In this document: positions 14,964 through 61,539 of the stretch, one piece after another
Numbering within the stretch: position 1 is the first letter of the stretch
How the letters are laid out: every line of letters begins with the position of its first letter
NCBI GenBank assembly: GCA_964036195.1
Contig: OZ038459.1
Span: 3,593,206 to 3,657,205, forward strand
DNA: 64,000 nt
DNA from: Sphaerolaimus hirsutus
Lineage: Eukaryota; Nematoda; Chromadorea; Monhysterida; Sphaerolaimidae
Direction of reading: 5' to 3'
Notes under the pieces: generated by a model
What the model was told of the DNA's origin: nothing
What the model saw: the letters and a program-made list of their open reading frames with translations, nothing else
Databases searched by the model: none
Made by a program: the position numbers and the translations under genes

Positions 14964-15203
14964 CCCTACACACACTAGTTTTCACATAATCCGATGTGAA
15001 AACAGAAATGGCAACATGGCGACATCCAACCTACTCTTTTTGTATGCTATATGTGTTTTACTTTTAAAATTTTAAAATTATAACTTTCATAAATGTAAAT
15101 TCCAATTCAAATAAAATAAAATCATTCAACCATGTTCATTTATTTCCATTTGAAAAAATTTCAGTTTTCACACGAAGTCATAGTGAAAACTAGTGTGTGT
15201 AGG
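14964..15203. repeat. Short TIR element with 21-bp perfect ends
   Basis: CCTACACACACTAGTTTTCAC at the left is exactly complementary to GTGAAAACTAGTGTGTGTAGG at the right. The interior is AT-rich and non-coding. The CACACTAGTTT word also occurs near 9,898, 33,842 and 52,612, so it belongs to a dispersed family. Confidence 0.7.
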
Positions 15204-15681
15204 CACATCGATCTCTACCCTTCTAGTTTAGAACAAACATAAATTTTCATAAATATCATAATCATACACAATAAGATAACATTGTTTTGTTTTCTGTGGT
15301 TGTCAGTTTTACTTGTTCTATGCAGCCACATTAATGAGGCAGTCTAGAACATTAAGCCCAAAAATGACCAACAACAAGAAAAATGTAATCAAATTGTGTA
15401 TGATTACATCATTTATGAAATTTTACATTAATCTTCCTCAGGCAAGAAGGTGATTGAGATCAAGGTGTATCACACAACATATCATTAATTTTCATGAGAA
15501 AAGGTTATTGTCCAATATTTTTGTTATCACATGTATATCACACTGCTTTTCAAAACACACTCATCACACTGCTTTATAAAAATATTGATCTCAATCAACC
15601 ACAGCAAAAAATGGGTGTGTGGATGCTTGGTGAAGCATTGGGAAGTGTCTTCATGCTGACACTTCCTGGTGCCTCACCAAG
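15204..15681. other. Left flank of the giant retrotransposon insertion
   Basis: AT-rich with no supported gene. Its last part (15,600-15,681: GGAAGTGTCTTCATG, ACACTTCCTGGTGCCTCACC) resembles the sequence resuming at 33,356, where GGCACTTCCACAC and GGAAGCATGCGGAAGC words recur. The retrotransposon therefore inserted into a pre-existing low-complexity repeat. Confidence 0.5.
15678..15681. other. Target-site duplication CAAG (left copy)
   Basis: CAAG directly abuts the TG of the LTR and is repeated after the CA of the other LTR at 33,352-33,355. Four bases fits a Ty3/gypsy-type integrase. Confidence 0.8.
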
Positions 15682-18330
15682 TGTCATGAATTTTCACCGG
15701 CTGCTTTTTTACTCAACCAAATTCCACTATGGCAAACTGCCAAGTTTTACCGATCTCACACCTACTCGTTGGATGAGCGACAAAGTAAGGCAACGGAAAA
15801 GCGACTACCGATTGAATTCGCAACGCACAATGGTGAATTCACCGAAGTGAATATCACAGGTGTACGCTACGTCAATTAAGTTAGCTTTTTAGCGAATGGC
15901 GTTTTTTATCAACGCACTAGCAATTAGTTGAATGTCTAATTTACACCAAGGGGTCCGAAGTTTTTAGAAGAGATTTTATTTTAGGTGATTTTTAGACTCA
16001 GAATTCACACATTCAGATAGAACACAGGGAACACACTGAGAGCGAGTTTCTAACCAGCGGCACAAAACCTTCGAAAAAACTCCAAGAAATGAAACCGAAG
16101 CAATTTCGACTGAATCGACCCCTACTCTAAATTACGGTACGCTTTTATACGCAACAACATAAGCCAAGTCCAGACAACACTTCCACATACCACGAGAAGC
16201 ATGCTTACAAACGATTTTACGGACACACGGAATTTTAAAACGGGCATACCTAAAATTATTCACGGCGTCAGTTTACAGGATACGTCGATCAACTACACAA
16301 AAACACAAAGAATTCACGCGCCAAAAATCGGGTTGGGAACAAGAGCGAGGATAAAAATAGAAGAATGAGAAAATGAACGAATGCGACAAGAATAAAAAGA
16401 ACAGGAAAAACACACGAGATACTGTAAAAACTTGTTTTAGCGCGAAAAAAATGGCGGGCGATTCAAATTTTACTCAGCGAACTCTACCGAAATCCCAAAA
16501 CCACCTCCACGAACGGGGAAACACACGGCGATAAGCGAAACAAATAAGCACGCGAACAATAATCCCATCAGCAAAAAGAGCGTATAGTAAAGGAAAATGA
16601 CGTTGATATCCAAAGCGTAAGAAGCACACATATTATTAATGCACAACGAAAAAATGTCGTAAGTGGGATAATCCATGATGAGATTAGGATACCGGTAAGG
16701 CGAACGAAATTAACTTTCACACTGACTGTCAAGGAAAAAATGAATTACGGTACCGTTTTAAAGACGCTTAGCGGAAATTCCACCAGAGTGATAAAATAAA
16801 TACGCACTCAAATCAGATCACATTTCCACTTATCAAAATATTCGGGGAAAAAACAGGAAAAACAAGCGGCTTATTATTTCATCTCTTTGTATAATAAAGA
16901 TCAACCACAACATTTGCATAAATTCCTAAATATCCAAATGTCAAGTTATCAGTTTTCTAGGGGAAAGGGAAATACAAAAAAAAATCAATCTAGGATTAGG
17001 TAGATAAAAAAAATAGCGAAGTTGCAAACGTAAAATCAAATAAAAATTAACATACTCGAGTTTTACCTATTCCCTACCAAACCTAAAGTTAAAATGAATA
17101 TGAAGTCGGTATAACGCTTAATAAAAATACGAACGCAAATGATTGGCAACTTGAAAGTTTATAAATTTCAATCTTTTTAGCTCAAGTGCATGTTTAGATT
17201 GCATGACTTTTTTAGAAGTTCGAAACTGAACAACCTCTAAGTGAATCCACTGCCACATGCCAAAACGCAACAGCCATTAACTACCGAAGACACTTATCTC
17301 TAGAAAATGACCACTCTCGCTGCTACACCACTCATTCTGCTACCAGAATGTTAATTAGTTAGCCACGGCTTTTTGATCCCATACGCACTGTGCAAAAACC
17401 ACACCCCGAAAATACCGAACTACTCAATTCACTCAAAAATAAGTACACTTGTCACTGTATGGGTGCTTGTTTCGATGAGATCGGCGGACTGGGCTGTTCT
17501 CACAACAAGCCAAGGGAGTAGGCATTTAGACATGAGATCATGCCTGTCGAGTTAGACTCGATTCTTTTAATTACCTCTCATTTTCAACACCAATCATCAC
17601 CGCACCTCTATAATCAGTGTACTTTTGTAAAATCGCTTGTAAGTTAACTTTTGTTTCTCAATTCGGAAATGCAGAAATGCACAGTACATACTAGATCAAT
17701 AGCCACGGCCGTCACTTCAAAAAATGCAGCGAAAGTTGGCCAAAATTCAACCTATGTGCCCTCAGTTATCACTGACCATTCACGCACTACGACACGTAAC
17801 TGCAGCGTCACTCTTTTTACTTAGAAAAAATAAATGAAACTTTGTTATGCAATCTAAACTGCTAATAGAAATAGAAAAAATACTTTTAAATTAAACTGTC
17901 ACAATTAAAATTGTTGCCAATTCACTTGTCTCACTTTCTTAAAAAAAAACTACCTAATTAACTAAAAAAAATTCTAAACAAATAAAAACAATTATTTACA
18001 TCACAGCGTCAACTTTGTGTCAGATCCTCAATACCTCCAATCCTTTCCTTGGCCAAAAAGACACACATAACACAATGGGGCACCGGAAAAACGGAAATGC
18101 ACGTTGCCACGTTGCCAACGTAGCGCAGCGACGTAGCCGAAAACGTCAACGCCACGTTCGCCCACCGAATCGCCCAAAACCAACGTCGAAGTAGAACTGA
18201 AATGTTTAAATTATTGTAAGCTCGGAAGTGTAAACAACCCTCTACATAAATTCGTTAAGTGAACTATATATACATTTACGCTTAAAATTTTTGAAATTTT
18301 ACAATTTTTGGACACCCACTTTTGCTCACA
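15682..18330 (-). repeat. 3' LTR (2,649 bp)
   Basis: Begins TG and ends CA on both strands. It is essentially identical to 30,703-33,351. Differences seen by eye lie at about 16,006, 16,592, 16,630, 16,648, 16,775 and 17,282. In the element's orientation it contains a TATATATA-type box near 18,268, a TTTTTCCGGTGCCCCA motif near 18,082, a 68-codon hydrophobic frame (16,676-16,470) and an AATAAA near 15,978. Confidence 0.93.
16470..16676 (-). CDS. Small hydrophobic ORF inside the LTR (3' copy)
   Basis: An ATG-initiated 68-codon frame on the element's sense strand, with a long hydrophobic centre (VIFLYYTLFLLMGLLFACLF and beyond) that would form one or two membrane helices, then a short Gly-rich tail. 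The ATG is preceded by TTACCGGTATCCTA, close to the CCGGTATCCTA before the Gag ATG. Three of the six LTR substitutions fall in this 207-bp frame and all change residues, so there is no sign of purifying selection. It may encode an accessory peptide or be chance. Confidence 0.35.
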   Translation of the reverse strand: MDYPTYDIFSLCINNMCASYALDINVIFLYYTLFLLMGLLFACLFVSLIAVCFPVRGGGFGISVEFAE

Positions 18331-18631
18331 AACTCCACCAGCCATACATTTTACCTTCCGGCTAAAATCGAAACACAGCAAAACTATTAAAGAAACGAAT
18401 TGAAATAAATTCCCGTTTTTTAAAAACTATTTAAACCAATTTTAAATTTATTAACAACCATTACGCATTTTTCCACACTTTGTTGAAAACACAAAAAACT
18501 TTTGAACCGGTAAAACTCAATGAAAATTCAATTTTCAATTCAACAAAAGCTCAATTCTACTGGTAAAACGTTTCCTCAACAAAAACGACTAAAAACAAAA
18601 ACAAAAAAATTCCTGTACACCTAAATTACCA
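18331..18631 (-). other. Untranslated stretch between helicase stop and 3' LTR
   Basis: About 300 bp, AT-rich, without a frame. A polypurine tract would be expected just before the LTR. Only a short purine stretch (GGTGGAG on the minus strand) is visible, which is weak for a Ty3/gypsy element. Confidence 0.45.
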
Positions 18632-20701
18632 TTACTCCGCTTCCATCTCCTCCTCTGGCTCCAAACCTGCCAAAGTTGGAGTCACTGGCGGGGGCGGACT
18701 CTGTTCCTCTTGCGGTGGCGGTGACGCGCCAACTACAACAACCTGAACAGGTTGCTGCAGCTGCTGTGCGGCCACTTCCTCAGGCTGCTCCTGTTCCTGC
18801 TCATCTTCCTGCATGGGCTCAACTTCATTGGCCTCTTCCTGGATGGCGTCCATTTGTCTTAGCATCTGCCGGTCTGGATTCGTGGACTGTTGTTGTCGCT
18901 CGGCGTCCAGCTCGGTGTTCAACTCGCCCGCCATTTGAATTAACTCATCCAATTTTTCTCCAATGATTGCATTGTTGGCCTCTTCAGTATCTGGCTCTGG
19001 TTCTTGCTCTTGCCGTTGACCTTCCATTGCCGGTTCCTGCTGTTGAGCACCTTGTTCACTCTGCTCTTGTTCCACCTCCATCACCTCCTCCTCCGGGAGC
19101 GTTTTCTGTTGATGTGCTGGCACGGGCGGCGCGCGTTCCGACTCCGAAGCCGAATCGGTTTCACTCGAACCCGACGAAGAACTAGAGGAAGAGGAAGAAC
19201 TCGACGAGGGAGAACGACGGCGACCGCGATGTCGACGCCGAGACCGAGAACAACTCGCCTTTTCCTCCGCGCGCGGCTGCACTTCCTCTGGCTCCGCCTC
19301 CTGCTCTTCTTCCGGCGGTAACATTTGCACGTCTGGGGAATCGGGAGCGGCAACGCTAGCATCGGGCTGAGGGGACGCTCGCTGTTCGCTCACATCCACC
19401 TCCTGGACTTCTTCCGGCGGAGGAACCTCGTTTTCTTCTTCTTCTTGCACTGGCGGCGCGGGTTCTTGCAGATCGACCGGGGCACGTCTCCAGTGCCTCA
19501 AAAAACTAGCCAACGGGTCACTTTCCCACAAATGCCGCTCATGGTACGCAAAAACGCGTCCCTTTCCTAATTCCACTGCCACAAAACGCCAGAAAAACTC
19601 GGAGTGCAGCACGGTAGCGGCGTTCATGATCACGACTCTGGCCGTTTTGGCGCGAGACGTGGCCACGTTGCACCGCTCCGGCATCGCCAAAAAGCCAATT
19701 CTGTCCATCACATCGCGCTCGCGCTGCGACGGGTGCCCAGTAGCGTCCACTCGCGGCACGCTACCCCTCACACATGACACAATCACCACGTGCGCTTCAC
19801 GAGCTTGCGCTCGATCAGCAGTGATGACTTTTTTCCGCCAAAACGCTGGGGTCGCTAAATAGCCAGGGAACCCCTCTCCCCCTAACAACTGCGCCCAGCT
19901 CAATCGCACCAATTCGTCAATCACTCTTCTCTCCTGCGCTGAATAGAAACACACAACCAGCAGCGAATCGGCGCTTTCTAAATCACTCCACGGAACGACA
20001 TTCTCGCCCTCGCTGTTCAGCGCCAAAATGACAAATTGCTGCACAACGCGCACCACAATGTCCACTTCCGCCAAATTTTTAACAGACACGCCCTTGCTCA
20101 TTTCGAAACCCATGTGCACGATCACAGAAGACAAAGGCACCTGATCGGCACCGCAAGCCATGAGCGGCAAAGTATCTCGCCACTGACTGTATTCGTGGAA
20201 CGATCGGCCATCGTACGCAGCGATTTGGCCATTGTACGCAGCGACAGAATTCGCTTGAATCAGCGCGTCGTGGCCGCGGAAAACAGTCTCGAGCTTCAGA
20301 ATTGGGCACAGCACACCTTCCACCAACCTGTTGATCAGCGATGGATCAGGTTTCAGGATCGGGGCGATCCATGAATGCGGCCTGACCATTCGGGTCAACT
20401 GTTTGCTATCGCCAAACAAAAGCACCAAGCCATTGTGGGGGAGTCGAGCGTTTGAAACAGCGCCAAAAATGGCAGTTTCATCCGCCAGTGACGCCTCGTC
20501 CACAAACACCGCGGCATATTTCAAAACTTGCAGTCGCTTATCGCGCGATGAATCCAAGGTCACATGGACTTGGCCGGGCTGCAGCACATTCAACACCACC
20601 TTATGCAACCTAGTAGCCACCCTTACGAGGCGTCGCATTTCGCGCTTGTAAATTTTACCCCACACCTGATTGTCATCGACAAAGCCAGCCGCGGCCCCCA
20701 C
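18632..20701 (-). CDS. Helicase, C-terminal segment: SF1 motifs II-VI plus acidic Ser/Arg-rich tail
   Basis: The C-terminal two thirds of an Upf1/Mov10-like superfamily 1 helicase. Numbered from the start of this open segment: motif II VFVDEAS (DEAS, 68-71); motif III LLFGDSKQL (97-102); ETVFRGHDALI (about 138-148), equivalent to the QYRM region; an LLVVCFYSAQ segment (about 247-256); motif V region ITADRAQAREAHVVIVSCVR (about 293-312); and motif VI RCNVATSRAK. Spacing and wording (SCVR, GFL, NVA-SRAK) match the AAA_11/AAA_12 type that unwinds RNA or RNA-DNA duplexes. After about residue 400 comes a 290-residue tail rich in Glu, Pro and Gln with an SRSRRRHRGRRR patch and a run of 12 serines. 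Walker A lies in the preceding segment in another frame. This segment's first codon is GTG within a G5 run, so it is not an independent start. Confidence 0.9.
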   Translation of the reverse strand: MGAAAGFVDDNQVWGKIYKREMRRLVRVATRLHKVVLNVLQPGQVHVTLDSSRDKRLQVLKYAAVFVDEASLADETAIFGAVSNARLPHNGLVLLFGDSKQLTRMVRPHSWIAPILKPDPSLINRLVEGVLCPILKLETVFRGHDALIQANSVAAYNGQIAAYDGRSFHEYSQWRDTLPLMACGADQVPLSSVIVHMGFEMSKGVSVKNLAEVDIVVRVVQQFVILALNSEGENVVPWSDLESADSLLVVCFYSAQERRVIDELVRLSWAQLLGGEGFPGYLATPAFWRKKVITADRAQAREAHVVIVSCVRGSVPRVDATGHPSQRERDVMDRIGFLAMPERCNVATSRAKTARVVIMNAATVLHSEFFWRFVAVELGKGRVFAYHERHLWESDPLASFLRHWRRAPVDLQEPAPPVQEEEENEVPPPEEVQEVDVSEQRASPQPDASVAAPDSPDVQMLPPEEEQEAEPEEVQPRAEEKASCSRSRRRHRGRRRSPSSSSSSSSSSSSGSSETDSASESERAPPVPAHQQKTLPEEEVMEVEQEQSEQGAQQQEPAMEGQRQEQEPEPDTEEANNAIIGEKLDELIQMAGELNTELDAERQQQSTNPDRQMLRQMDAIQEEANEVEPMQEDEQEQEQPEEVAAQQLQQPVQVVVVGASPPPQEEQSPPPPVTPTLAGLEPEEEMEAE

Positions 20702-22086
20702 GCCTGCACGCCTTCCTCTTGACCATCGTCCAGTGGCACCAAATCATCCTCGTCGTCTTTGTCGATGGACAAACGAACCAAAGGCAACTGCGACCGAATG
20801 GCTTCGAAAATGTCGGCGGGATGCTGATTGTTCGCGATGATCTCGTTCAAAGTGTCACAAATATGGCGTTGAGCGGTAAAGCGTTCATAAGCAGTTAGCC
20901 AGTGGTCATTCAATCGAATCACATGCATGGGCATATTTTGCGCGATCAAGTTCAACAGCGGCAATTGCTGGAGCGTCATATCGACGTAGCGATCGTCAAC
21001 TTCCAACAACGGACTCAGCACGCGAATCGCGAAAGCAGCGCGCACTTGACAAAAACGCGCATAGCCAGGTGTTTCAAAATTCGGTTTGTTATCCATCGCA
21101 GTCCACGTCTCCCTACTGCGCAGCAAAACTTCCACGACCCTTTCCAAAGTAGGCAGACCGATGTCCGCCAAACTTTGCAACGATCGTCTAGCAGACTCAT
21201 CAGCGGCCGAATTCACACTGCAAGTAATCATTGTGGAGTGGTAAAGCGCATTTTTGTTTGCATCAGAGGGCAATTCCCTCTTCAGCGGGTTCGGCGGGTC
21301 ATTTTTCTCAGTAAATTTGAACGCAACCGCGTACGCACACTGACTTTGCACAGTCGTTTTACCAGAACCGAATGGTGAATCACACATCAACAATAGCGGC
21401 GCAGTTTTTCGCACAGACTTGATAACTGACGCAATCACACGCCCCTGGCCCTCCTGCGGCCGAAAATCACCCTGATGCGCTTGCAATAAGTCTTCGCATG
21501 TGCCTCTGCGCACCTCAGCATACAACCCGTCAGCCTCAATTTTTTCGAGCGTGCGCTGCCAATCAGTCTCAACTTGGTTCAACTGCTTGTGCAGCACTAC
21601 CGCCATTTTGACCTGGTCTTCCACAGCGAGCATTCCGGTGTTGCTCTCGGTTGGCCGGTAACCACTAGGCCCCATTATGCACAACCGCTCCAAAATTTCC
21701 ATGCAGCCATTGTAGCTAGGCGACAAAGCGGAACCGCGCACCATGTAATCGCAATTGGGCAGCAAATGCGGCGACAGCGCCTGCGGCACCAACACATCCG
21801 GTTTGGCGACCAGCTGCACCGCCTCGGCAGTGATGTCGGCGCTGACCGTGCGTAAATTTATTTGCGGGCGGCCAGTCAGAGCACGCTCTTCCCCCCGGGG
21901 ATCAGCTTCGACGATTTGTAGCGACGACATGGGCGAAGTAAAATTCAACATGTAGCCCTGCGCCTTATTCCTGTGCCACTCGGCCGTGTCGCGCATCGCA
22001 GCAGCTGGATTCAAATGCACGCGCTCCCACCTAATTATCGCAATTAATCCCCGCGGCCCATTTTGCCAAGTCACCTGCGCGCGCAC
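20623..22086 (-). CDS. Helicase, central segment with Walker A
   Basis: A 487-codon open segment between, and overlapping, the N- and C-terminal helicase segments but in a different frame. Residues about 235-245 read CDSPFGSGKTT, a Walker A (motif I) loop. QEGQGRVIASVIKS just before it resembles the Q-motif helix of Upf1-like helicases. The sequence then continues toward motif II, which is found only in the next segment. The split lies between motifs I and II, so neither segment alone would be an active ATPase. The overlap with the next segment (20,701-20,623) contains a five-G run at 20,695-20,699; one base difference there would join the frames. The overlap with the previous segment contains a GCGCGCGC run at about 22,075-22,084. 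Confidence 0.85.
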   Translation of the reverse strand: MRAQVTWQNGPRGLIAIIRWERVHLNPAAAMRDTAEWHRNKAQGYMLNFTSPMSSLQIVEADPRGEERALTGRPQINLRTVSADITAEAVQLVAKPDVLVPQALSPHLLPNCDYMVRGSALSPSYNGCMEILERLCIMGPSGYRPTESNTGMLAVEDQVKMAVVLHKQLNQVETDWQRTLEKIEADGLYAEVRRGTCEDLLQAHQGDFRPQEGQGRVIASVIKSVRKTAPLLLMCDSPFGSGKTTVQSQCAYAVAFKFTEKNDPPNPLKRELPSDANKNALYHSTMITCSVNSAADESARRSLQSLADIGLPTLERVVEVLLRSRETWTAMDNKPNFETPGYARFCQVRAAFAIRVLSPLLEVDDRYVDMTLQQLPLLNLIAQNMPMHVIRLNDHWLTAYERFTAQRHICDTLNEIIANNQHPADIFEAIRSQLPLVRLSIDKDDEDDLVPLDDGQEEGVQAWGPRLALSMTIRCGVKFTSAKCDAS

Positions 22087-22909
22087 TTTTCATGACATTT
22101 TCGCTGTGCGCAAAAATCAACTTTTCAGGGCCCGGATCCCGCTCGTCGGCGCCTTTGAAGGGGGGTGCACTAATATACCGCGAAGGGGTGAACGCCGCTC
22201 TCAAACGCAAATATCTCCACTTGGCCGGATAAGGATGATATCCTTCGCGATTTTCCTGTCCTCTCTGTGAGATTTCCGACGCTGGCTCATCGACGGAGAG
22301 GTCAACCTGTCCTTGCGAAACAATGACAACAGGGCGGCCCAGAAACAATGGCATTTGAGTGTCATTTTTCATAATGGTGACGCCTCGCAATTCCCAATAT
22401 TTTGGATTGGCGCTAACCCTACTGATACCAGTCACGACAAAATGCATGCCGTGGCGGACCAGTGGCAAAAACATGTCGTAGGCTTCGTTAGCCTCGCGAT
22501 ATTCCCTCAAAGTTTTCTGCACCGACCGCTCACGAGCGCGCTCCGCTTTGTTGACCGAATAGGTGAAAAATGGATAAGCCGTTTCCGCTTCCGACCACTC
22601 CGGATAACTTTCCAAGAGCGCCTGCGCATCGCCGTCGAAACGAATGTGGCATTGATAACTGGTAGGACGCTGCTCGTTACCGACGTGAACTCGATCCACT
22701 ATTCCCGACAACTTTTGGTTGATGACAATTTCAGGACAAATCGATCGGGCGTTTCGAGGAGGATTGTAGGGCAGCGGCGGAATAGTGTCACCGCCCTGTT
22801 TTCCATGAGAAGTCCACGACTTGAGCGGCGCTTTGGCTATGCGCCCGCCACGGTACGAACTGGAACTCGCTCCATACCCACCCATGGGTACGCCACCCGA
22901 ACTAGTCAT
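22031..22909 (-). CDS. Helicase ORF, N-terminal segment
   Basis: Starts with ATG at 22,909 and runs 292 codons. It opens with a Gly/Ser-rich stretch (GGVPMGGYGASSSSYRGG), typical of disordered RNA-binding tails, then a folded-looking region of unknown family. It is in the same frame as the C-terminal segment and one base off the central one. I recognise no domain here. By position it corresponds to the N-terminal and 1B-like regions before the RecA core of Upf1-type helicases, but that is inference. The upstream sequence shares CCGGT and CTACTTTGA words with the region before the Gag ATG. The 538 bp between the integrase stop and this ATG are non-coding, so this is a separate cistron, not a readthrough of pol. 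Confidence 0.7.
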   Translation of the reverse strand: MTSSGGVPMGGYGASSSSYRGGRIAKAPLKSWTSHGKQGGDTIPPLPYNPPRNARSICPEIVINQKLSGIVDRVHVGNEQRPTSYQCHIRFDGDAQALLESYPEWSEAETAYPFFTYSVNKAERARERSVQKTLREYREANEAYDMFLPLVRHGMHFVVTGISRVSANPKYWELRGVTIMKNDTQMPLFLGRPVVIVSQGQVDLSVDEPASEISQRGQENREGYHPYPAKWRYLRLRAAFTPSRYISAPPFKGADERDPGPEKLIFAHSENVMKSARAGDLAKWAAGINCDN

Positions 22910-22945
22910 ATTTCACACTTCAAAGTAGAGCACCGGAAAACACAA
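22910..22945 (-). promoter_or_regulatory. Shared signal upstream of helicase ATG
   Basis: On the minus strand TTGTGTTTTCCGGTGCTC is followed by TACTTTGAAG and, 10 bases later, the ATG. The Gag ATG is preceded by TGTGTTTTTCCGGTATCC then TACTTTGAG. Both end in AG (TTTGAAG, TTTGAG), so splice acceptors for LTR-initiated RNAs are one reading; duplicated initiator-type promoters are another. Confidence 0.5.
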
Positions 22946-23447
22946 CTTATTGCTACTTAAAATGCGCCACCCAGAATGTCGGCACCGAAATGCACGAAGG
23001 TCTGAGCGACACCCTAATCGAAAAGTTGCGAATTATTTTCAACGCACTACGTTGAACGTATTGCGCCAAAAATAATTTTTATTTTGTTGCGAAATGGGCG
23101 AAAATGAGAATGAAATTAAAGAACGAATTTAGAACGAAATAAATGCGATGGTATGAATAACTAACGAATTAAACTTGCGACGATAATTAGAAACGGACAA
23201 TTAATAACACTGATAAAATTTTCGCGCTTTACCTTTACCTTTTACATAAAAGACAACTTTTTACCTCAAAATTACCTTGCGCACAATCAAAAATACCAAA
23301 TTTGCAACCCCAAACTCACCACGAATTAACGGTCAGAATTAAACGCGAATAATCCAAATAAAAATGAAAATAAATTTTAATTGAATTTCCGAACGGAATA
23401 ATTGACTTGAAGCACTTTAGGTTGAAGAGCGGAAAATCTCAGGGTTT
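22946..23447 (-). other. Non-coding spacer between integrase and helicase
   Basis: About 500 bp of AT-rich sequence with no frame. It would hold the regulatory or splice signals of the downstream helicase cistron. Confidence 0.5.
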
Positions 23448-26256
23448 TTAACCGAAAATCTGCGAATAAGTGGGATTAACTGGCTCATTTGTTAATTTAA
23501 CGCGATCAGCATGAACGGTATAAGTTTTCTTAGACAACCTATTAAACACGGTCACAATGGGATGCACATAATCTAAACATTCATACGGGCCAATATAATG
23601 ATGCGTGAATTTCTTAACGCGGCCTAACTTTCGAAGAATTCGGGGCGAATAAACACGAACTGATTGACCGGGCTTCAAATTCAAGCGGCGCGCACTGCGA
23701 TTTGCATAAAAACACTCTTTTTCTTGCGCGCGTTGTAAAGCCGAATGCGCGGCCGTGCGGACGTCCGAAAGTCGCGCGTCTAAATTTGACACAAAAGGAC
23801 TGTACGCCATCGGCTTATCGGTCTTATCGGTGCCATTTCCCGTCGGCTCGATCATACACTCCCAAAGTGACGGAGAATTTGATCCAAATAGCAACGCATA
23901 TGGCGTCACTTTCATAGAGGGGTGCATAGACGTATTATACGCATAGACAGCGGCGCCTAAGTGTTTGTCCCAATCCGAGTGCGAACTATTCACATAATGC
24001 GAAATTATTTCCATTAAGACGCCATTCCTACGCTCAACCAAACCATTCCCCTTTGGCGTATAATTGAAACACTTATGCTGCACTGTATTTAGATAACGCA
24101 GCAATTCCGCAAAAATGCCGCCAATGAAGCTTGGTGCATTGTCGGATAAGATTACAGCGGGCACACCAAAAATCGGTAACACATGTTGCAAGAACGCAAT
24201 AGCCACAGTATCTTGTTTCAAATTAGGAACGGGCACTGCTAAACCAAAACGCGTACATTGATCCACAAATACCAATACATGCACATTCCTTTTTTCGGTA
24301 ATTGGCAATGGCCCTACTGCATCAATCGCAATAAAATCACCAGGAAACTTAGCGATTTTCCGGCTCTGAATTTGAGTTTTCATCGAGCGGCGCAATCCTT
24401 TCTTCGCGTTGCACGAAGGGCAAGTAGAAACCCATCTAGCACATTCTGGACGCATATTTGTAAACCAAGCAAATTCGCGCAATCTTTCAAACGTTTTCAT
24501 CACACCTAAATGTCCAGCAGTGGGATGATTATGAGCCAATTCTAACACAGTGACAACTAGTGACTGGGGAATGCACGCAGGGTCGTATTTCATTTCACCC
24601 ACTAATATTGACGGGTCTGCATCACGCCTAACCACATCAAATTGATCAATGAAAAACGGTGGGGCCCTACGCAAAGTAGATTCCTCGCACATGCGACGAA
24701 TTGTAATTATATACGGTTCTTCTTTTTGCAAACGCGACAACTCTTCAATTGTAGTAATGGGAGGAGGTAAAGCATCGAGTTTTTCCGGTTTCTTAATTAA
24801 TTGAACAGAACGGCGGCCACCAGCCATTAATTTAGACGCATCGTCACTTTTGGGCGGCGATTTCAAAGCACTTTCAGAATTGGACTCCACCTTCGGTTTA
24901 CTTCGCACACGCATTGTCATTGGATGCGGCGCCCGCACAGTAGCAACGCTTGCCACTGGCGGTTCAGCAGCTACCGTAACTGACGGTTCCAAAGACTTCA
25001 TTTTCGCATGTTTCAGCCAATTTTGAGCAGCAGCCAATCGCGCCATGGCCTTAGCTACCGCTTGACAAGCTAAATGTTCCTCAGATGTTAACAACGCCAT
25101 TTCCTCAGTCAAAATTCTCGCCAATTCATCAACAGGTATATCAAACGCATATTCTTCAAACGCTTCGTCCAAATTAACACGCTCATCAAATTCAACGGGT
25201 GCATCACGCCGGCGCGACAAAGCATCAGCCAATTCGTTACTTTTCCCACGCAAATGCTTAAAAGTAACTTGATATGATTGAATAGCAAGCGCAAATCGGT
25301 GCAAACCCGTATGGGGATGGGTTTCCAAATTGGGATTTTTTACCCATGAAATACTTTTCGCATCAGTCCACACTTCAAACGGCCGGCCCGCTAAAAAACA
25401 ATGCCAATTGCGTATGCTCTCAAAAATAGCACATGCTTCTTGCGTAATTGCAGGCCATCGGGATTGCGCTTCAGAAAGTTTTCGGCTATAAAATGAACAC
25501 GCATGCAAAGCGGCGGCAGGTTCAGCGCGCTGTACTAAAATGCCAGCTAATGCAACTTTAGAAGCATCGGTAATAATTATGAACGGTTTACTGGGATCAG
25601 GATACTGTATACAGGGACTCTCAGCCACCATCACTTTCAACTTATTAAAAGCTTCCAAAGCGGCGGGGTTCGCATTTAAATCTACGGGAGTACTTCCGCT
25701 ATACTTTTCAGTTCCTAATTCAGTTTTTGTTCGAGTTAAATTAGACAAGGGAGCGGCATATTCAGCACATTTATGAATTAACCTCCGGAAAAACCCAACA
25801 GCGCCTAAAAACGCTTTAACTTCACGCACACATACAGGTAGCGGCCAATCGCTCAAATACTTTCGCTTGTCATCTGGTATACAAATCCCTTCACGCCCTA
25901 CCATATAACCCAGGAATTTAACAGCAGTTGTGCGCGCGAAAAAACACTTTTTTGGGTGTATTTTAAAACTGCTACTTATCAAACGCGACAAAACCTGACT
26001 TATATCACTAAAATGATCTTCCCATGATCTACTGTAAATGAGCAAATCATCTATATATACCAACACATTTCGGTGCAATAATCCAGCCATTGTAACTTCA
26101 AAACAGCGCTGCGCTAAAGCCGGGGAACACTTTAATCCCATCGGCAAGCGTTTCATCTGAAATTGGCCAAAACAATTACGAAACGACGTAATATGTCTAT
26201 CATCTGGATGCAGTGCAATGTTGTAAAACGCTTGATTGATATCGACACTGCTAAAA
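23448..26256 (-). CDS. Pol, second open segment: RT (from palm), RNase H, integrase
   Basis: Continues pol after a one-base frame break. From its first internal Met (26,156): YIDD of reverse transcriptase at 34-37; the RT thumb and connection; RNase H with ITDASKVALAG near 196, the WTDAKS block and RGKSNELADALSR; a linker rich in Pro and Lys; integrase with an HHCC finger (HNHPTAGHLG near 541, then CPSC), catalytic D near 612 (IAIDAVGPL), D near 671 (LSDNAPS) and E near 708 (GLVERRNG); and a C-terminal domain ending near 23,448. The catalytic residues I can locate are all present. The frame joins the upstream polyprotein at an A5 run on the plus strand (26,253-26,257). Confidence 0.92.
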
Positions 26257-29200
26257 ATACTTGCAACTGTGCAATGACTCTATTGTATCGTCTAATCTGG
26301 GCAGCGGAAATTGGGGAGCGTGAACTACTGCATTTAATCGCCGATAATCTATCACCATGCGCTTGGCACCATCCGGCTTAGTAACAACTAATGTCGGCGC
26401 GCAGTACAGACTCGTACTGTGTTCGATGACATCATGCTCAAGCAAGCAACTTAGATGCTTTTCTAAGTACTGCTGGTCATCCAAACTCAACCTATACATT
26501 CGACACGCGACCGGAATTTTACTGGTCAATTGAAGTCGATAATCAACCAATTCACTGTATCCCAAATCATACTTATCCCTGGCGAAAGCATCCTGATGAG
26601 TCAAAATCAACTCTTTTAATTGCTGGCGCTTAATTTCGTCCAATTCAACCGGTACCTCAAAATCCATTTCCCTCCCATCAGCACAAACCACTTTCATAGT
26701 TGTATTCGCTGCTTTAGAAGGTACAGTGCCCTCCGTCGGTACTTTTTCCTCACTAGTTTCAAGTATAGTATCGGTAAAACTCATATCACGCTCGCGGCAT
26801 TCTCGCACCCACTCAGCAGGCGGATCACCTCGACGCACTTGTAAAACACACTCCACTGGCTCTACGATGGCAATTTTCTGGCCCACCTGCAACTTTACCG
26901 GCACCTCAGTCACATTAACACACCTCACCGGAAACAATTCACTTGCGCTTTCATAAACAGCATTAGCTGCAAACACACCCGTTTTCACATGAAATTCATT
27001 CAAAGGCTCAATCGCAAACGTCAATTCATCAATTGGTTCAGATAATTTTGCACTAATTATCGTTTCATGCCGCGGCTTAATTTCAGTCGGTTCAGTCACA
27101 ATTGCATAGACATGCCGTTCTTGCACTACAGGCGGTGGGTTGTCAAAAGGCACGATCAACTTTTTACGCGCATCGCCACTCTCAATTCGCAACTCACGCG
27201 CAGGCATATCAATAACCATATGCCTCAACACATCAGCGCCCAATAAAATATCGTCCGACAAACCGCTAATCACCTGAAACACAATAGAAAACGCTTTCCC
27301 GGTAATCATCACTTGAAGTTCCAACTGACCCTCAATTTGCAATTTGCATTGAGACGCGCTTTGCAATCCCCCCACAGGCGTGACTTCATCAAACGCTATG
27401 CAATTATTTCGATGCCTAGCCAACACCAACGGGCTGCACAATGACCTCATCGCACCTGTGTCCAACAGACACCTTTTGTATTCATTCCCCTCAATTTCTA
27501 CCGTAATCGACGGACTATAGTAAATTGGCACGAGTTCTTTACGCTTAGCCGTAATACTTTTGATGTTCGCAATTTCTTCACTGGTCAGCGTGACTACATT
27601 CACCTTTTCCATGACGGCAGAACCTTTAGGAACGCGCAGCGGCGGCAAACGCTTAAATCTACTCACTGGCGTTTCTTCAACATCAGCGCTATACCCTGAA
27701 CTGTCAACGCTAACTGGATTTAACTTTTGCGGCGGTGTCACGGGGGTCGCACCCCTTGCAGGATTGCGCCTATTTTCTATCGCTTGCATGCGATTCAATT
27801 GAAACCGCAACACTCTTAATTTTATCCAATCACACACTACGCACACCAAATACAACACCAGTTCACACAAAGCGGGCAGAATATATCTCAGAAACACGGA
27901 AGTACACATTCCAGCGATAAATCCCTCAAGAAAATTTCGCACAGTCAAAATCCACTCATCTGACACTCCTTTTTTCTTAACAACGCCACCACTTGGAACA
28001 CCCAGGGCGTCAGCACTTGCAAAAAACGTAAATAGACAGCACAGGAAAAACACACGGTTCAACACACTGGGCAACATACTCGGTTCCGACCACGTTCGGT
28101 ACAAAGTTGGCACGCTCGCTTCACAATAATCGGACAACACATACAACTCAGAGTCAGATGACGTTCGCGACAAACTAATATCCGGCGGTTCACACCTAAA
28201 CGTATGCATGGTCAATTCTAACAGCGCTGCTAACTTAACATACGTCAACGTGTCCTCAGGGTCGTCATGCGGATGCTCATCAGCATGCTCACAAAACCCG
28301 CTAATGTTTAACCCCTGCAAACCCATGTGTTGCAATTGAGCCCACCACTTAGTTCGAAATATCATGCTATCTAACGAACGCGCATAAACCCAAGGCATAA
28401 TCCAAGCCTCTCTTTCGAGCATGAATTGATGTTCTTGCGGCATTATTTCAGGCGGATTGCATGGATCCTCTGCTTCCTCATCCGAACTTTCAAGACCTGG
28501 TAAAACCCTAATCATGCGCACATATTCCTTACTTTCTTGCACGCTGCGTGCATGATTCACTGAGTTCGCAGACACGCGCGTCGGATTTAACGCAGTCAAT
28601 TCAGTTGACGGAGGGGCCGCAATGGCCATTTGCGATGATTGAACTTGTTGCACTGGAGACCAACTAGTAGTTGACACTTGCGCGGGAGGGGGATAATACA
28701 GGTAAGGCGCCGCTTGCATAGGATATACAGGTTGCTGTGCAGAGCGCATCATGTTCGCTGGACCTCTAAAGTTATTCATTGGTCGCTGCGGCGGCCCACG
28801 CCGAAAATTTCTAAAGCGCGCTCTTTCCTCTTCTGTCAATTTAGGACAATCAGAGCGAAAGTGATCATCTGCCCCACATTCATAACAGCCCTCATCAAAT
28901 TTACGCAGCCTAAATTTGGAAACTGGTTTCGCAGCATTGTTACCTATCAATTGTTTTTCCAAGTCAACTAAACGCTTATCCTTATCCTCTAATTGCCTAG
29001 AAAGTTCTTCCAATTTCACTCGCTGTTCCTCAAACTTTGGATTTTCCGCCGCCGCTGGAACGGGCGGGGAATTTCCGAAAGCTCCCGCACCCCCTAAAGC
29101 AAAAATTTGCTCGATTACCGAATTGGTGGCTTCTGAAACTAATTCAGCGTTGGATTTTGACTTTTTCTTACCACCCACTTTGTCCTTATCAATTTCCAGA

Positions 29201-30177
29201 AAACTTTCTTGCGTGCGCGCATTATTAACTACGTCTTGAAACTTAGCCCCAGCAGTAATAGATACATTCCTACGAATGTCAGGATACAATCCACTAACAA
29301 ATTTCGCCACTGCCATCTTTTCGCGTTCAAGTTTTGAAAGTTTCGGAAAAGCGCGTTTTATAATCTTCTCCAGCCGCACCGACCAATTTAACACATCTTC
29401 ATCTTCGCCCTGCTCACTACTAATTACTTCCCTTTGCGCATGATGCTCCGAAATGGGGTTAGTATAATAACGTTCCAAAGCATCCATGAACTCCTCATAA
29501 TCCAAATTGACCAATTCACTCTTATGCGACATGTAAATCGAACGCGCGCTGTCACGCAAATAAACCGGAAGCAGCGATTTTCGCTCATCCGTCGGAATTT
29601 GCAACGCCTCACAAACTGCATCCCAATTTTTACGCCAATCAGCAAATTTATCATCAGCGCGCCCCTTAAATGGTATCACCTGTCCAGTAAGCGCGGTCAT
29701 GGCAGCAGCATAACCCTCCCTACTAGTAGCAATCATACTCACGGCAGGTATAGGTGGTGTGGTAGCGGTAGAGCACCCTCCCGAATTAGAAACAGCGCTA
29801 ATTATGGAATTAATCACTTGCATGTCAGGCTTTTCTAAATGAATATACTCGGCAAATGCATTAATCGCGTCCGCAATTTGACTCACATCATTTCGCAAAT
29901 TATAGCAGTCAACACCTAACTTTACTAATGACACTAATTTTTCGTCATTATCACTCATGTTCCCATTTTCCAAAGAACTCATGGGTCGCTGATTATACAA
30001 ATAAGCGGCAATGCTCACCGTTTGAGTCACAACCTGACTAAGGTTCCATTCTGACCCCTGAACCGAATTTCCCACTATCGACGAATTAATTTGATTCAAA
30101 GTCAAATTTTTCGCTTGAATCAACAATTGCACTACATCTGGACCCGTATTCACACCACTACCGCTCGCATGCGCCAT
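26251..30177 (-). CDS. Gag-protease-RT (first segment) of the giant retrotransposon
   Basis: The first ATG of this frame is at 30,177, giving 1,308 residues, though the frame is open without an ATG from about 30,662. Order: Gag/capsid-like region; CX2CX4HX4C zinc knuckle (CYECGADDHFRSDC, about 430-443); a linker with an acidic stretch; a signal-peptide-like hydrophobic stretch (VFFLCCLFTFFASA, about 709-722); a second long hydrophobic helix (about 753-782); a basic linker; aspartic protease with DTG (about 904); and the beginning of RT (MVIDYRRLN, about 1277). It ends at TAG inside RT fingers/palm because of a one-base shift at a T5 run. The membrane-like insert between nucleocapsid and protease is not usual in Ty3/gypsy polyproteins. 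Confidence 0.9.
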   Translation of the reverse strand: MAHASGSGVNTGPDVVQLLIQAKNLTLNQINSSIVGNSVQGSEWNLSQVVTQTVSIAAYLYNQRPMSSLENGNMSDNDEKLVSLVKLGVDCYNLRNDVSQIADAINAFAEYIHLEKPDMQVINSIISAVSNSGGCSTATTPPIPAVSMIATSREGYAAAMTALTGQVIPFKGRADDKFADWRKNWDAVCEALQIPTDERKSLLPVYLRDSARSIYMSHKSELVNLDYEEFMDALERYYTNPISEHHAQREVISSEQGEDEDVLNWSVRLEKIIKRAFPKLSKLEREKMAVAKFVSGLYPDIRRNVSITAGAKFQDVVNNARTQESFLEIDKDKVGGKKKSKSNAELVSEATNSVIEQIFALGGAGAFGNSPPVPAAAENPKFEEQRVKLEELSRQLEDKDKRLVDLEKQLIGNNAAKPVSKFRLRKFDEGCYECGADDHFRSDCPKLTEEERARFRNFRRGPPQRPMNNFRGPANMMRSAQQPVYPMQAAPYLYYPPPAQVSTTSWSPVQQVQSSQMAIAAPPSTELTALNPTRVSANSVNHARSVQESKEYVRMIRVLPGLESSDEEAEDPCNPPEIMPQEHQFMLEREAWIMPWVYARSLDSMIFRTKWWAQLQHMGLQGLNISGFCEHADEHPHDDPEDTLTYVKLAALLELTMHTFRCEPPDISLSRTSSDSELYVLSDYCEASVPTLYRTWSEPSMLPSVLNRVFFLCCLFTFFASADALGVPSGGVVKKKGVSDEWILTVRNFLEGFIAGMCTSVFLRYILPALCELVLYLVCVVCDWIKLRVLRFQLNRMQAIENRRNPARGATPVTPPQKLNPVSVDSSGYSADVEETPVSRFKRLPPLRVPKGSAVMEKVNVVTLTSEEIANIKSITAKRKELVPIYYSPSITVEIEGNEYKRCLLDTGAMRSLCSPLVLARHRNNCIAFDEVTPVGGLQSASQCKLQIEGQLELQVMITGKAFSIVFQVISGLSDDILLGADVLRHMVIDMPARELRIESGDARKKLIVPFDNPPPVVQERHVYAIVTEPTEIKPRHETIISAKLSEPIDELTFAIEPLNEFHVKTGVFAANAVYESASELFPVRCVNVTEVPVKLQVGQKIAIVEPVECVLQVRRGDPPAEWVRECRERDMSFTDTILETSEEKVPTEGTVPSKAANTTMKVVCADGREMDFEVPVELDEIKRQQLKELILTHQDAFARDKYDLGYSELVDYRLQLTSKIPVACRMYRLSLDDQQYLEKHLSCLLEHDVIEHSTSLYCAPTLVVTKPDGAKRMVIDYRRLNAVVHAPQFPLPRLDDTIESLHSCKYF

Positions 30178-30206
30178 ACTCAAAGTAGGATACCGGAAAA
30201 ACACAC
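30178..30206 (-). promoter_or_regulatory. Shared signal upstream of Gag ATG
   Basis: On the minus strand TGTGTTTTTCCGGTATCC, TACTTTGAG, T, then ATG. It is nearly the same as the sequence before the helicase ATG at 22,945-22,910. A donor-like GTGAGA lies near 30,628, just after the primer-binding site. This would allow a leader of LTR origin to be joined to either AG, as in retroviral splicing; that is an inference. Confidence 0.5.
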
Positions 30207-30662
30207 ACTCACTTGACGACTGGGTACTCGCGCTTCGGTACCCGGCACTCGCGCTTCGGTGCCCTAACTTACTTTGCCCTGCGGTCGGGAATGGCACCTC
30301 CGCACCCGCACGTGGCTTGCCTTGCTCAAAGGTCGGGAATGGCTCCTCCGCACCTCTTTCAGGGACCGGTCCTTCCGCGTCCACCCAGCAGTTGACGTCA
30401 AAGTCGTTAGGTTCGTCACTCAACTCAGCGGTTCCCGGTTCAGAACAGTGCGCGTCCGTACTGAACTGAACCGATTTCGATTTTTTCTTACTTTTCCGCT
30501 TTTCCCTTTTTTGCCCACTAATAATTTCGTCAGTTTCACGTCCCAAAACAAAAATATCCGTGCTTATCGGTTGCGTCGATCGGGTAGCCTTCCGTTCCTC
30601 CAGCCGGGCGGTGGTTCGTTTGTTCTCACCAGCGATTGTCAAACGGTGATCAGTCGCCTGAA
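30207..30662 (-). other. ATG-less open extension upstream of Gag
   Basis: The Gag frame stays open for about 160 codons upstream of its first ATG, with no stop and no Met. Its composition is unusual: Lys/Arg-rich (KREKRKSKKKSK), then imperfect repeats of an EPFPT/EVPFPT plus GK motif. It could be translated if a spliced leader or non-ATG start supplies the start codon, or be removed as an intron (GTGAGA donor near 30,628). Confidence 0.4.
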
Positions 30663-30682
30663 CTCACTGGGAATATTAAACA

Positions 30683-30700
30683 AACCACTCGCTGCTACCA
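30683..30700 (-). promoter_or_regulatory. Primer-binding site of the giant retrotransposon
   Basis: Two bases after the 5' LTR the minus strand reads TGGTAGCAGCGAGTGGTTT. TGGTAGCAG is complementary to a tRNA 3' end CTGCTACCA, as in animal initiator tRNA-Met. The next bases match that tRNA only in part (TGGTTT shared, three mismatches between). Position and the TGG start make this a good primer site; the tRNA identity is less certain. Confidence 0.7.
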
Positions 30701-30702
30701 GT

Positions 30703-33351
30703 TGTCATGAATTTTCACCGGCTGCTTTTTTACTCAACCAAATTCCACTATGGCAAACTGCCAAGTTTTACCGATCTCACACCTACTCGTTGGATGAGCG
30801 ACAAAGTAAGGCAACGGAAAAGCGACTACCGATTGAATTCGCAACGCACAATGGTGAATTCACCGAAGTGAATATCACAGGTGTACGCTACGTCAATTAA
30901 GTTAGCTTTTTAGCGAATGGCGTTTTTTATCAACGCACTAGCAATTAGTTGAATGTCTAATTTACACCAAGGGGTCCGAAGTTTTTAGAAGAGATTTTAT
31001 TTTAGGCGATTTTTAGACTCAGAATTCACACATTCAGATAGAACACAGGGAACACACTGAGAGCGAGTTTCTAACCAGCGGCACAAAACCTTCGAAAAAA
31101 CTCCAAGAAATGAAACCGAAGCAATTTCGACTGAATCGACCCCTACTCTAAATTACGGTACGCTTTTATACGCAACAACATAAGCCAAGTCCAGACAACA
31201 CTTCCACATACCACGAGAAGCATGCTTACAAACGATTTTACGGACACACGGAATTTTAAAACGGGCATACCTAAAATTATTCACGGCGTCAGTTTACAGG
31301 ATACGTCGATCAACTACACAAAAACACAAAGAATTCACGCGCCAAAAATCGGGTTGGGAACAAGAGCGAGGATAAAAATAGAAGAATGAGAAAATGAACG
31401 AATGCGACAAGAATAAAAAGAACAGGAAAAACACACGAGATACTGTAAAAACTTGTTTTAGCGCGAAAAAAATGGCGGGCGATTCAAATTTTACTCAGCG
31501 AACTCTACCGAAATCCCAAAACCACCTCCACGAACGGGGAAACACACGGCGATAAGCGAAACAAATAAGCACGCGAACAATAATCCCATCAGCAAAAAGA
31601 GCGTATAGTAAACGAAAATGACGTTGATATCCAAAGCGTAAGAAGCACACGTATTATTAATGCACAACAAAAAAATGTCGTAAGTGGGATAATCCATGAT
31701 GAGATTAGGATACCGGTAAGGCGAACGAAATTAACTTTCACACTGACTGTCAAGGAAAAAATGAATTACGGTACCGTTTTAAAGATGCTTAGCGGAAATT
31801 CCACCAGAGTGATAAAATAAATACGCACTCAAATCAGATCACATTTCCACTTATCAAAATATTCGGGGAAAAAACAGGAAAAACAAGCGGCTTATTATTT
31901 CATCTCTTTGTATAATAAAGATCAACCACAACATTTGCATAAATTCCTAAATATCCAAATGTCAAGTTATCAGTTTTCTAGGGGAAAGGGAAATACAAAA
32001 AAAAATCAATCTAGGATTAGGTAGATAAAAAAAATAGCGAAGTTGCAAACGTAAAATCAAATAAAAATTAACATACTCGAGTTTTACCTATTCCCTACCA
32101 AACCTAAAGTTAAAATGAATATGAAGTCGGTATAACGCTTAATAAAAATACGAACGCAAATGATTGGCAACTTGAAAGTTTATAAATTTCAATCTTTTTA
32201 GCTCAAGTGCATGTTTAGATTGCATGACTTTTTTAGAAGTTCGAAACTGAACAACCTCTAAGTGAATCCACTGCCACATGCCGAAACGCAACAGCCATTA
32301 ACTACCGAAGACACTTATCTCTAGAAAATGACCACTCTCGCTGCTACACCACTCATTCTGCTACCAGAATGTTAATTAGTTAGCCACGGCTTTTTGATCC
32401 CATACGCACTGTGCAAAAACCACACCCCGAAAATACCGAACTACTCAATTCACTCAAAAATAAGTACACTTGTCACTGTATGGGTGCTTGTTTCGATGAG
32501 ATCGGCGGACTGGGCTGTTCTCACAACAAGCCAAGGGAGTAGGCATTTAGACATGAGATCATGCCTGTCGAGTTAGACTCGATTCTTTTAATTACCTCTC
32601 ATTTTCAACACCAATCATCACCGCACCTCTATAATCAGTGTACTTTTGTAAAATCGCTTGTAAGTTAACTTTTGTTTCTCAATTCGGAAATGCAGAAATG
32701 CACAGTACATACTAGATCAATAGCCACGGCCGTCACTTCAAAAAATGCAGCGAAAGTTGGCCAAAATTCAACCTATGTGCCCTCAGTTATCACTGACCAT
32801 TCACGCACTACGACACGTAACTGCAGCGTCACTCTTTTTACTTAGAAAAAATAAATGAAACTTTGTTATGCAATCTAAACTGCTAATAGAAATAGAAAAA
32901 ATACTTTTAAATTAAACTGTCACAATTAAAATTGTTGCCAATTCACTTGTCTCACTTTCTTAAAAAAAAACTACCTAATTAACTAAAAAAAATTCTAAAC
33001 AAATAAAAACAATTATTTACATCACAGCGTCAACTTTGTGTCAGATCCTCAATACCTCCAATCCTTTCCTTGGCCAAAAAGACACACATAACACAATGGG
33101 GCACCGGAAAAACGGAAATGCACGTTGCCACGTTGCCAACGTAGCGCAGCGACGTAGCCGAAAACGTCAACGCCACGTTCGCCCACCGAATCGCCCAAAA
33201 CCAACGTCGAAGTAGAACTGAAATGTTTAAATTATTGTAAGCTCGGAAGTGTAAACAACCCTCTACATAAATTCGTTAAGTGAACTATATATACATTTAC
33301 GCTTAAAATTTTTGAAATTTTACAATTTTTGGACACCCACTTTTGCTCACA
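30703..33351 (-). repeat. 5' LTR (2,649 bp)
   Basis: The sense-strand upstream LTR of the element, same length as the other copy and with about 0.2% divergence. In the element's orientation it shows a TATATATA-type box near 33,289 and TTTTTCCGGTGCCCCA near 33,103, where the promoter would be expected, and a 68-codon hydrophobic frame at 31,697-31,491. Confidence 0.93.
31491..31697 (-). CDS. Small hydrophobic ORF inside the LTR (5' copy)
   Basis: The same 68-codon frame as in the 3' LTR, with three residue differences (Leu for Ser, Thr for Met, Val for Leu). ATG follows TTACCGGTATCCTAATCTCATC. In this copy it would lie in the 5' leader of the genomic RNA, upstream of Gag, where a translated membrane peptide or upstream ORF could affect expression. 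Confidence 0.35.
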   Translation of the reverse strand: MDYPTYDIFLLCINNTCASYALDINVIFVYYTLFLLMGLLFACLFVSLIAVCFPVRGGGFGISVEFAE

Positions 33352-33660
33352 CAAGCATGCTGGCACTTCCACACACATTTTGAATATCAGTGTGAAGGCA
33401 CTTCATGCATCTTAATTTGGCAGTCACACCCAAATACAATGTAGGGGAAGCGTGTGGGGAAGCACCAGTGCCATGAAATGTTTTCACAATTTTGGATGCA
33501 TGTGAAGTGCATGGTGAAGCTAGGTGAAGCATGTGGAAGACACTTCACTGAGATTTTTGTGTCGCTGGTGGAAGCATGCGGAAGCAAGCTGCTTCACATG
33601 CATCCAGGCTGCTTCCACACACTTCATGGATCCATTTTTTGCTGTGAGCAAGACTATGAA
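33352..33660. repeat. Low-complexity GGAAGC/CACTTCC repeat hosting the insertion
   Basis: Starts with the right CAAG duplication, then many variants of CTTCCACACACTTC, GGAAGCATG and TGAAGCATG in both orientations. It continues the sequence broken at 15,681. Apparent frames through it are low-complexity shadows. Confidence 0.5.
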
Positions 33661-34899: not shown

Positions 34900-34997
34900 T
34901 TTATGCTTATTTCTTACACGATGAAAATGATGGTAGCTAAAATGTAACCACTTCCATAATTACAAATTTCAGCGTGATACCTTTATCCATTTTTTGT

Positions 34998-61534: not shown

Positions 61535-61539
61535 TCTCC

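What the first reader, a model, noticed from the sequence alone, without database searches (positions are those of the whole stretch)
15682..33351. A 17.7-kb Ty3/gypsy retrotransposon with an Upf1/Mov10-like helicase in the env position
Seen: paired 2,649-bp LTRs, CAAG duplication, primer site, gag-pol, then about 4.3 kb of coding sequence with Walker A, DEAS, GDSKQL, SCVR and NVATSRAK, all on one strand and all inside the LTRs. Known: Mov10/Armitage/ERI-6/7-type SF1 helicases restrict retroelements or act in small-RNA silencing. Inference: the element may have captured a host helicase to unwind its own RNA, or to block or decoy the silencing pathway. I know of no standard gypsy architecture with an SF1 helicase after integrase.
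Basis: partly seen in the sequence, partly recalled or inferred. Interest (0 to 1): 0.95.

Follow-up and report, generated by a model that had tools for sequence, protein, structure and literature searches.

The report
Retrotransposon carrying an Upf1-like helicase gene
A young LTR retrotransposon from an unidentified eukaryote carries, where a virus-like relative would keep its envelope gene, a large RNA-helicase gene of the Upf1 kind; only one copy could be examined, so whether this is a lineage or a one-off is open.

Summary
Window 15682-33351 is a Ty3/gypsy-type element on the minus strand: two 2,649-bp LTRs with 6 mismatches and CAAG on both sides, gag, protease motif, RT, RNase H, integrase. 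Between integrase and the 3' LTR lies about 4.3 kb of coding sequence with Upf1-type SF1 helicase motifs: Pfam AAA_12 3.7e-19; nearest solved structures Upf1/NAM7 and IGHMBP2. The helicase pieces differ from gag-pol in third-position GC (0.59 against 0.42) and show no sign of a nested insertion. This copy has three frame breaks, one in RT and two in the helicase gene. Virus-type helicases in insect retrotransposons are in print; a Upf1-type helicase in the env position of a Ty3/gypsy element was not seen in the listings of our paper searches. The decisive test, other copies in the same genome, could not be run: 14 identical requests did not complete. Best reading: an accessory gene acting on the element's own RNA, perhaps against decay or for export. 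Mechanism is inferred.

The parts
33352..33355 (.). target-site duplication CAAG (other copy 15678-15681)
30703..33351 (-). 5' LTR (in element sense), 2649 bp; TATAAAA at LTR position 2182 and AATAAA at 2351 (pattern matches, chance not assessed)
30685..30700 (-). primer-binding-site-like stretch starting TGG, 2 bases inside the LTR; tRNA not identified by any search (initiator-Met-like from recall only)
26251..30663 (-). gag (PNMA; CCHC below cut-off), protease motif, 5' part of RT: one stop-to-stop frame of 1470 codons, first ATG at codon 163
27832..28053 (-). strongly hydrophobic segments between the CCHC knuckle and the protease motif, inside the gag-pol frame
23448..26279 (-). rest of RT (YIDD), RNase H, integrase; frame break against the preceding frame within 26251-26279
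22910..23447 (-). AT-rich (65%) gap between integrase stop and helicase ATG; two acceptor-like motifs near 23210 and 23161 (pattern only)
22031..22912 (-). helicase gene, N-terminal frame (ATG at 22909); no family match
20623..22089 (-). helicase gene, middle frame with Walker A GSGKT at 21355-21369; only sub-threshold P-loop family matches, no PDB match
18632..20743 (-). helicase gene, C-terminal frame: DEAS 20489-20506, GDSKQL 20396-20413, FRG 20273-20293, SCVRG 19763-19786, NVATSRAK 19646-19669, AAA_12; then a 303-residue tail rich in E, Q, P, S with an RS-like stretch
18331..18344 (-). short purine-rich stretch next to the 3' LTR (candidate polypurine tract, weak)
15682..18330 (-). 3' LTR (in element sense), 2649 bp, 6 mismatches to the 5' LTR

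Best explanation
A recently inserted Ty3/gypsy-type LTR retrotransposon that carries, as a third gene behind integrase, a cellular-type (Upf1/IGHMBP2-like) superfamily-1 helicase. Shown: the element's anatomy and the helicase motifs. Inferred: the gene is a resident accessory gene made from a separate, probably spliced, mRNA, and the protein binds and remodels the element's own RNA. The step I think most likely is protection or export of the unspliced genomic RNA. If that RNA is translated as gag-pol, 5.1 kb follow the pol stop before the 3' LTR even begins, which is the long-3'UTR signature that host UPF1/NMD recognises; an element-borne relative of UPF1 could compete with, or stand in for, host UPF1 on that RNA. 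I put the identification at about 0.9, resident gene rather than one-off at about 0.65, and the decay/export mechanism at about 0.35.
For: LTRs with 6 differences in 2,649 and matching CAAG duplications point to one recent insertion of the whole block. AAA_12 3.7e-19, TIGR00376 5.1e-11, Upf1 and IGHMBP2 as the best PDB rows. The helicase motifs that I sought (I, II, III, the R of IV, V, VI) are present. Same strand, between integrase and 3' LTR; no A-run of 7 or more in the 301 bases behind the gene or the 539 before it, and the longest word shared by the two flanks is 10 bases, while the ten highest of 200 shuffles reach 12-13, so no sign of a nested retrocopy. Third-position GC 797 of 1355 codons in the helicase pieces against 947 of 2272 in gag-pol (chi-square 99); each of the three helicase pieces is higher (0.55-0.61) than both gag-pol pieces (0.39, 0.44), as expected of a gene with another history. 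Long-3'UTR retroviral RNAs and UPF1: titles and starts of abstracts of PMC5580461, PMC4693258, PMC5789848 (listing). A non-env extra protein of a Ty3-related element required for genomic RNA export is known: CERV of Cer1 (PMC10309623, passages).
Against: One copy only; no second copy, relative or transcript was seen. Protein database, two helicase searches, nothing; but the first admitted only candidates of about 387-1230 residues, so full-length relatives of about 1,425 residues were outside it. Viral contigs: nothing (few exact 8-residue patterns, close relatives only). The single genome contigs row proved a chance match. The helicase gene has two frame breaks and RT one, so this copy as read makes neither protein whole. 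The Walker A half has no PDB match at E <= 10 and only sub-threshold P-loop family matches. No N-terminal zinc domain of Upf1 was matched. A simple splice-donor pattern found nothing in the leader 29801-30702, so a spliced helicase mRNA has no direct support. The composition contrast fits capture but does not prove it. Nothing here tests decay, export or silencing.
Confidence: 0.5

Rival explanations
1. One-off transduction: a host Upf1-like mRNA was copied into this single element during reverse transcription and has no role in it; sister copies lack it.
For: Only one copy was seen; composition differs from gag-pol; two frame breaks already in the gene.
Against: About 1,425 codons with only two breaks and the sought motifs kept; no flanking duplication or poly-A; RT, essential for the element, also has a break, so breaks do not single out the helicase. 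That transduction usually leaves fragments is general knowledge, not from a call.
Confidence: 0.25
2. Silencing suppressor: the helicase unwinds or sequesters double-stranded RNA of the element, or is a decoy for a small-RNA helicase of the host.
For: Precedent: a virus-type helicase carried by an insect LINE weakly suppressed RNA silencing in Nicotiana leaves (PMC5563155, PMC6338049, passages).
Against: That helicase is of the virus replicase type, this one of the Upf1 type; no Mov10 or ERI-6/7 row was obtained; no functional data.
Confidence: 0.2
3. Reverse-transcription aid: the helicase is packaged and helps RT through a very long RNA.
For: The element is 17.7 kb with 2.65-kb LTRs; length limits by RT and packaging are discussed in PMC6431247 (passages).
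Against: The gene has its own ATG behind a non-coding gap, so it would need its own route into particles; none is visible.
Confidence: 0.15
4. Assembly chimera joining a retrotransposon and a host gene.
For: GC is higher in 18-22 kb than around it; no reads could be examined; an N run at 59459-59658 shows scaffolding elsewhere in the window.
Against: No N run in the element; both ends are matching LTRs with matching duplications, and the gene has the same strand and lies between integrase and the LTR.
Confidence: 0.07

Closest known systems
Insect retrotransposons with virus-type SF1 helicase domains (TRAS and Jockey LINEs; Ty1/Copia fusions in Aedes aegypti and Leptopilina boulardi): PMC5563155 (abstract and passages), PMC6338049 (passages)
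   Same: A retrotransposon carries a superfamily-1 helicase with its motifs kept.
   Different: There: plus-strand RNA virus type, in or beside LINE ORFs or fused to Copia domains. Here: Upf1/IGHMBP2 type, separate gene after integrase of a full Ty3/gypsy-type element.
Bdelloid rotifer LTR retrotransposons with enzymatic ORF3 (DEDDy exonuclease, GDSL esterase): PMC5408684 (12 of 20 passages)
   Same: An enzyme, not an envelope, occupies the gene slot after pol.
   Different: No helicase ORF3 in the passages seen; the paper's single use of the word helicase was not among them.
Cer1 of C. elegans with CERV: PMC10309623 (12 of 68 passages)
   Same: Ty3-related element with an extra, non-env protein from a spliced mRNA, required for genomic RNA export.
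   Different: CERV is 517 residues; the word helicase does not occur in the paper; its G domain lacks critical P-loop residues; exons 1-3 share gag's frame.
Burro and Ogre giant gypsy elements: PMC6431247 (passages)
   Same: Very long gypsy elements with extra coding capacity.
   Different: The three helicase mentions there concern Helitrons, giant viruses and Teratorn, not gypsy elements.
Host UPF1/NAM7 and IGHMBP2 (SMUBP-2)
   Same: AAA_12 half and matching motifs II, III, IV (R), V, VI.
   Different: Weak sequence similarity (best E 0.00035), no Upf1 zinc domain matched, an added acidic/RS-like tail of 303 residues.

Membership tests
Ty3/gypsy (Metaviridae) LTR retrotransposon | Two LTRs with short target duplication | tested here: met
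   2649 bp, 6 mismatches; CAAG on both sides
Ty3/gypsy (Metaviridae) LTR retrotransposon | gag, then PR-RT-RNase H-integrase in this order | tested here: met
   Pfam and motif order; protease by DTGA motif and sub-threshold matches, CCHC below cut-off
Ty3/gypsy (Metaviridae) LTR retrotransposon | RT places inside the Ty3/gypsy clade in a tree | not tested
   318 pol relatives found (120 listed); no clade-labelled reference set and no tree
Ty3/gypsy (Metaviridae) LTR retrotransposon | Primer-binding site and polypurine tract | tested here: inconclusive
   TGG-initial stretch at 30685-30700, tRNA not matched by a call; tract at 18331-18344 is short
Env-bearing gypsy element (errantivirus-like) | Envelope-like protein after pol | tested here: not met
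   Helicase there instead; no env family in the three pieces up to E 10; one marginal hydrophobic segment
Upf1-like SF1 helicase | C-terminal RecA half (AAA_12) | tested here: met
   3.7e-19, 69.5 bits against cut-off 27
Upf1-like SF1 helicase | N-terminal RecA half with Walker A and DEA(S/T) | tested here: inconclusive
   Motifs present; no AAA_11 match, sub-threshold P-loop matches, no PDB row for the Walker A frame; fold prediction never ran
UPF1 proper (orthologue) | N-terminal zinc (CH) domain | tested here: not met
   No family in the 293-residue N-terminal frame up to E 10
Mov10 / Armitage / ERI-6/7 | Closer to Mov10-type than to other SF1 helicases | not testable with these tools
   No Mov10 row among 13 PDB rows; whether that library holds one was not checked; no tree
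Virus-type SF1 helicase as in insect LINEs | Match to viral helicase families | tested here: not met
   No viral helicase family among Pfam rows up to E 10 for the three helicase pieces (HMMER drops most matches above about 0.1)

The most novel reading that the evidence does not exclude
A lineage of Ty3/gypsy retrotransposons has domesticated a cellular Upf1-family helicase in place of an envelope gene and uses it to shield its long genomic RNA from, or divert, the host's own Upf1-dependent decay: an element that carries its own version of the host's RNA-surveillance motor.
Probability: 0.25. Interest if true: 0.85.

Novelty: new variant of a known kind. Interest (0 to 1): 0.62.

Why it matters
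Retroviruses counter or borrow host UPF1 with RNA elements or other proteins (titles); an element with its own Upf1-like motor would be a genetically separable way to ask how long-3'UTR retroelement RNAs survive. It would also add an RNA-remodelling enzyme to the short list of enzymes found in the gene slot after pol, and a route by which helicase genes could move between genomes.

Tried and rejected
Close relatives. Helicase C-terminal frame, residues 1-400, in the protein database: 7,999 candidates scored, none at E <= 0.001 (lengths of about 387-1230 only). Its residues 295-400: 134 candidates, none at E <= 10. Viral contigs: helicase, 7 pattern stretches, none confirmed; pol, 1 stretch, none confirmed. 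Genome contigs: 18 stretches, one row from a gammaproteobacterial MAG; the match rests on one shared octapeptide-like stretch, 32 bits, with no helicase context in the ORFs listed, so it was dropped as chance. Pol: 318 proteins, 120 listed; all 120 were compared; the five alignments that span the whole frame are about 25% identical, too distant to name host or clade. Among them P0041 carries PNMA and pol on a 27.7-kb contig; its contig was not examined.

Nested insertion of a retrocopy: flanking duplication and poly-A looked for, none. Introns were considered for the frame changes; neighbouring frames overlap by 29, 59 and 121 bases and each overlap holds a run of four or more equal bases, so mutation or sequencing error is the simpler reading; not decided. 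A splice-donor pattern found nothing in 29801-30702. Host: no tRNA gene and no Rfam match; ten of the 45 further frames printed were scanned and none passed a Pfam cut-off.

Not run: the genome search 'own' with one kilobase of gag-pol, 14 identical requests unanswered; structure prediction full in six tries. A paper search with a slash in a term was rejected and rephrased. Ten paper searches ran (one search asked about UPF1 and retroviruses, the others about elements and helicases). I saw listings with abstract starts, several of them capped (for example 12 of 134, 20 of 35, 12 of 44), and opened parts of five papers. None shown there describes a Ty3/gypsy element with a Upf1-type helicase; most subscription journals are missing from that library.
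Full report
What is there. The window holds one LTR element on the minus strand, 15682-33351. Its LTRs are 2,649 bp and differ at 6 positions; CAAG stands on both outer sides; a repeat search of 14000-35000 showed no other long repeat pair. In element order: LTR 33351-30703, a TGG-initial primer-site-like stretch at 30700-30685, a frame of 1,470 codons (30663-26251) with PNMA-type gag (at its Pfam cut-off), a CCHC knuckle (below cut-off), hydrophobic segments, a DTGA protease motif and the first part of RT, then a frame (26279-23448) with the rest of RT (YIDD), RNase H and integrase. After a 65% AT gap an ATG at 22909 opens the third gene, which ends at 18632, 301 bases before the 3' LTR (18330-15682).

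The third gene. It spans about 1,425 codons in three overlapping frames. The last frame matches Pfam AAA_12 at 3.7e-19 and TIGR00376, the IGHMBP2 helicase model, at 5.1e-11 (41.7 bits against a whole-protein cut-off of 348.9). A first PDB search with the whole frame gave two rows, both NAM7, at E 0.0045 and 0.0088; the stretch 20671-19541 (377 residues) gave 13 rows at E <= 10: eight Upf1/NAM7, two SMUBP-2, one SEN1, two designed proteins. Motifs stand in order: GSGKT 21355, DEAS 20489, GDSKQL 20396, the R of VFRG 20273, SCVRG 19763, NVATSRAK 19646. That these residues bind and split ATP in this superfamily is recalled, not from a call. The Walker A frame has only sub-threshold family matches and no PDB row at E <= 10; the N-terminal 293 residues match no family. 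The tail of 303 residues is rich in E, P, Q and S (61, 37, 37, 31). No tree was made, so Upf1/IGHMBP2-like is the finest label I give; Mov10-like is not supported.

Is it part of the element? For: strand, position, one pair of near-identical LTRs with matching duplications around everything, no duplication or poly-A at the gene's edges. The gene differs in third-position GC (797 of 1355 codons against 947 of 2272; all three pieces above both gag-pol pieces), which fits an acquired gene. Against: only one copy was examined. Within the window there is no other copy: no BLAST match of LTR or inner part to the rest at E <= 1e-3, and no helicase match outside the element below E 0.6. The gypsy pol at 1373-6886 is another family (28.6% identity over 370 residues).

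State of this copy. RT is broken once (26251-26279) and the helicase gene twice (22031-22089 and 20623-20743); each overlap contains a run of four or more equal bases. Mutation and assembly error are both possible; reads would decide. As read, this copy would not make whole RT or whole helicase.

How it may work. If gag and pol are read from the full RNA, 5.1 kb (23447 to 18331) follow the pol stop before the 3' LTR; if the TATA-like and poly-A-like patterns at LTR positions 2182 and 2351 are real, more than 2 kb of LTR come on top. Such long tails are what UPF1-dependent decay acts on; RSV carries a stability element, HIV-1 recruits UPF1 for genomic RNA export, HTLV-1 Tax blocks UPF1 (titles and abstract starts of PMC5580461, PMC4693258, PMC5789848). 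Cer1 of C. elegans shows that a Ty3-related element can devote an extra spliced gene to genomic RNA export (PMC10309623, passages). I therefore rank 'acts on its own RNA, for survival or export' first, silencing block second, help to RT third. None is tested, and the splice-donor pattern search of the leader found nothing.

What is known. Helicases in retrotransposons are in print: virus-type SF1 domains in insect LINEs and two Ty1/Copia fusions, with weak silencing suppression by one (PMC5563155, PMC6338049, passages). Enzymes in the slot after pol are in print for rotifers (PMC5408684, passages). The listings of ten searches of an open-access library, some of them capped, showed no Upf1-type helicase gene in a Ty3/gypsy element. 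Hence 'new variant of a known kind'.

What is missing. The score is held down for that reason.

Noticed in passing
1373-6886 (+): A second gypsy-type gag-pol frame of 1,837 codons of another family, uninterrupted; no repeat pair between 1-1600 and 6501-15000 that could be its LTRs.
   Followed up: partly
27832-28053 (-): Strongly hydrophobic segments between the zinc knuckle and the protease motif inside the element's gag-pol frame, an odd place for membrane-like segments.
   Followed up: partly
34547-34901: Repeated 17-base G-rich units, with two overlapping weaker relatives (63%) at 14165-14229 on the other side of the element.
   Followed up: no
61534-61987: Head-to-tail copies about 107 bases apart, near a long CA/TG run around 60836-61147.
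   Followed up: no
59459-59658: A run of 200 N, so the window is a scaffold with a gap.
   Followed up: no
7658-8089 (+): Coiled-coil-like open frame behind the left pol; only weak, sub-threshold family matches. Could be that element's own extra gene.
   Followed up: no
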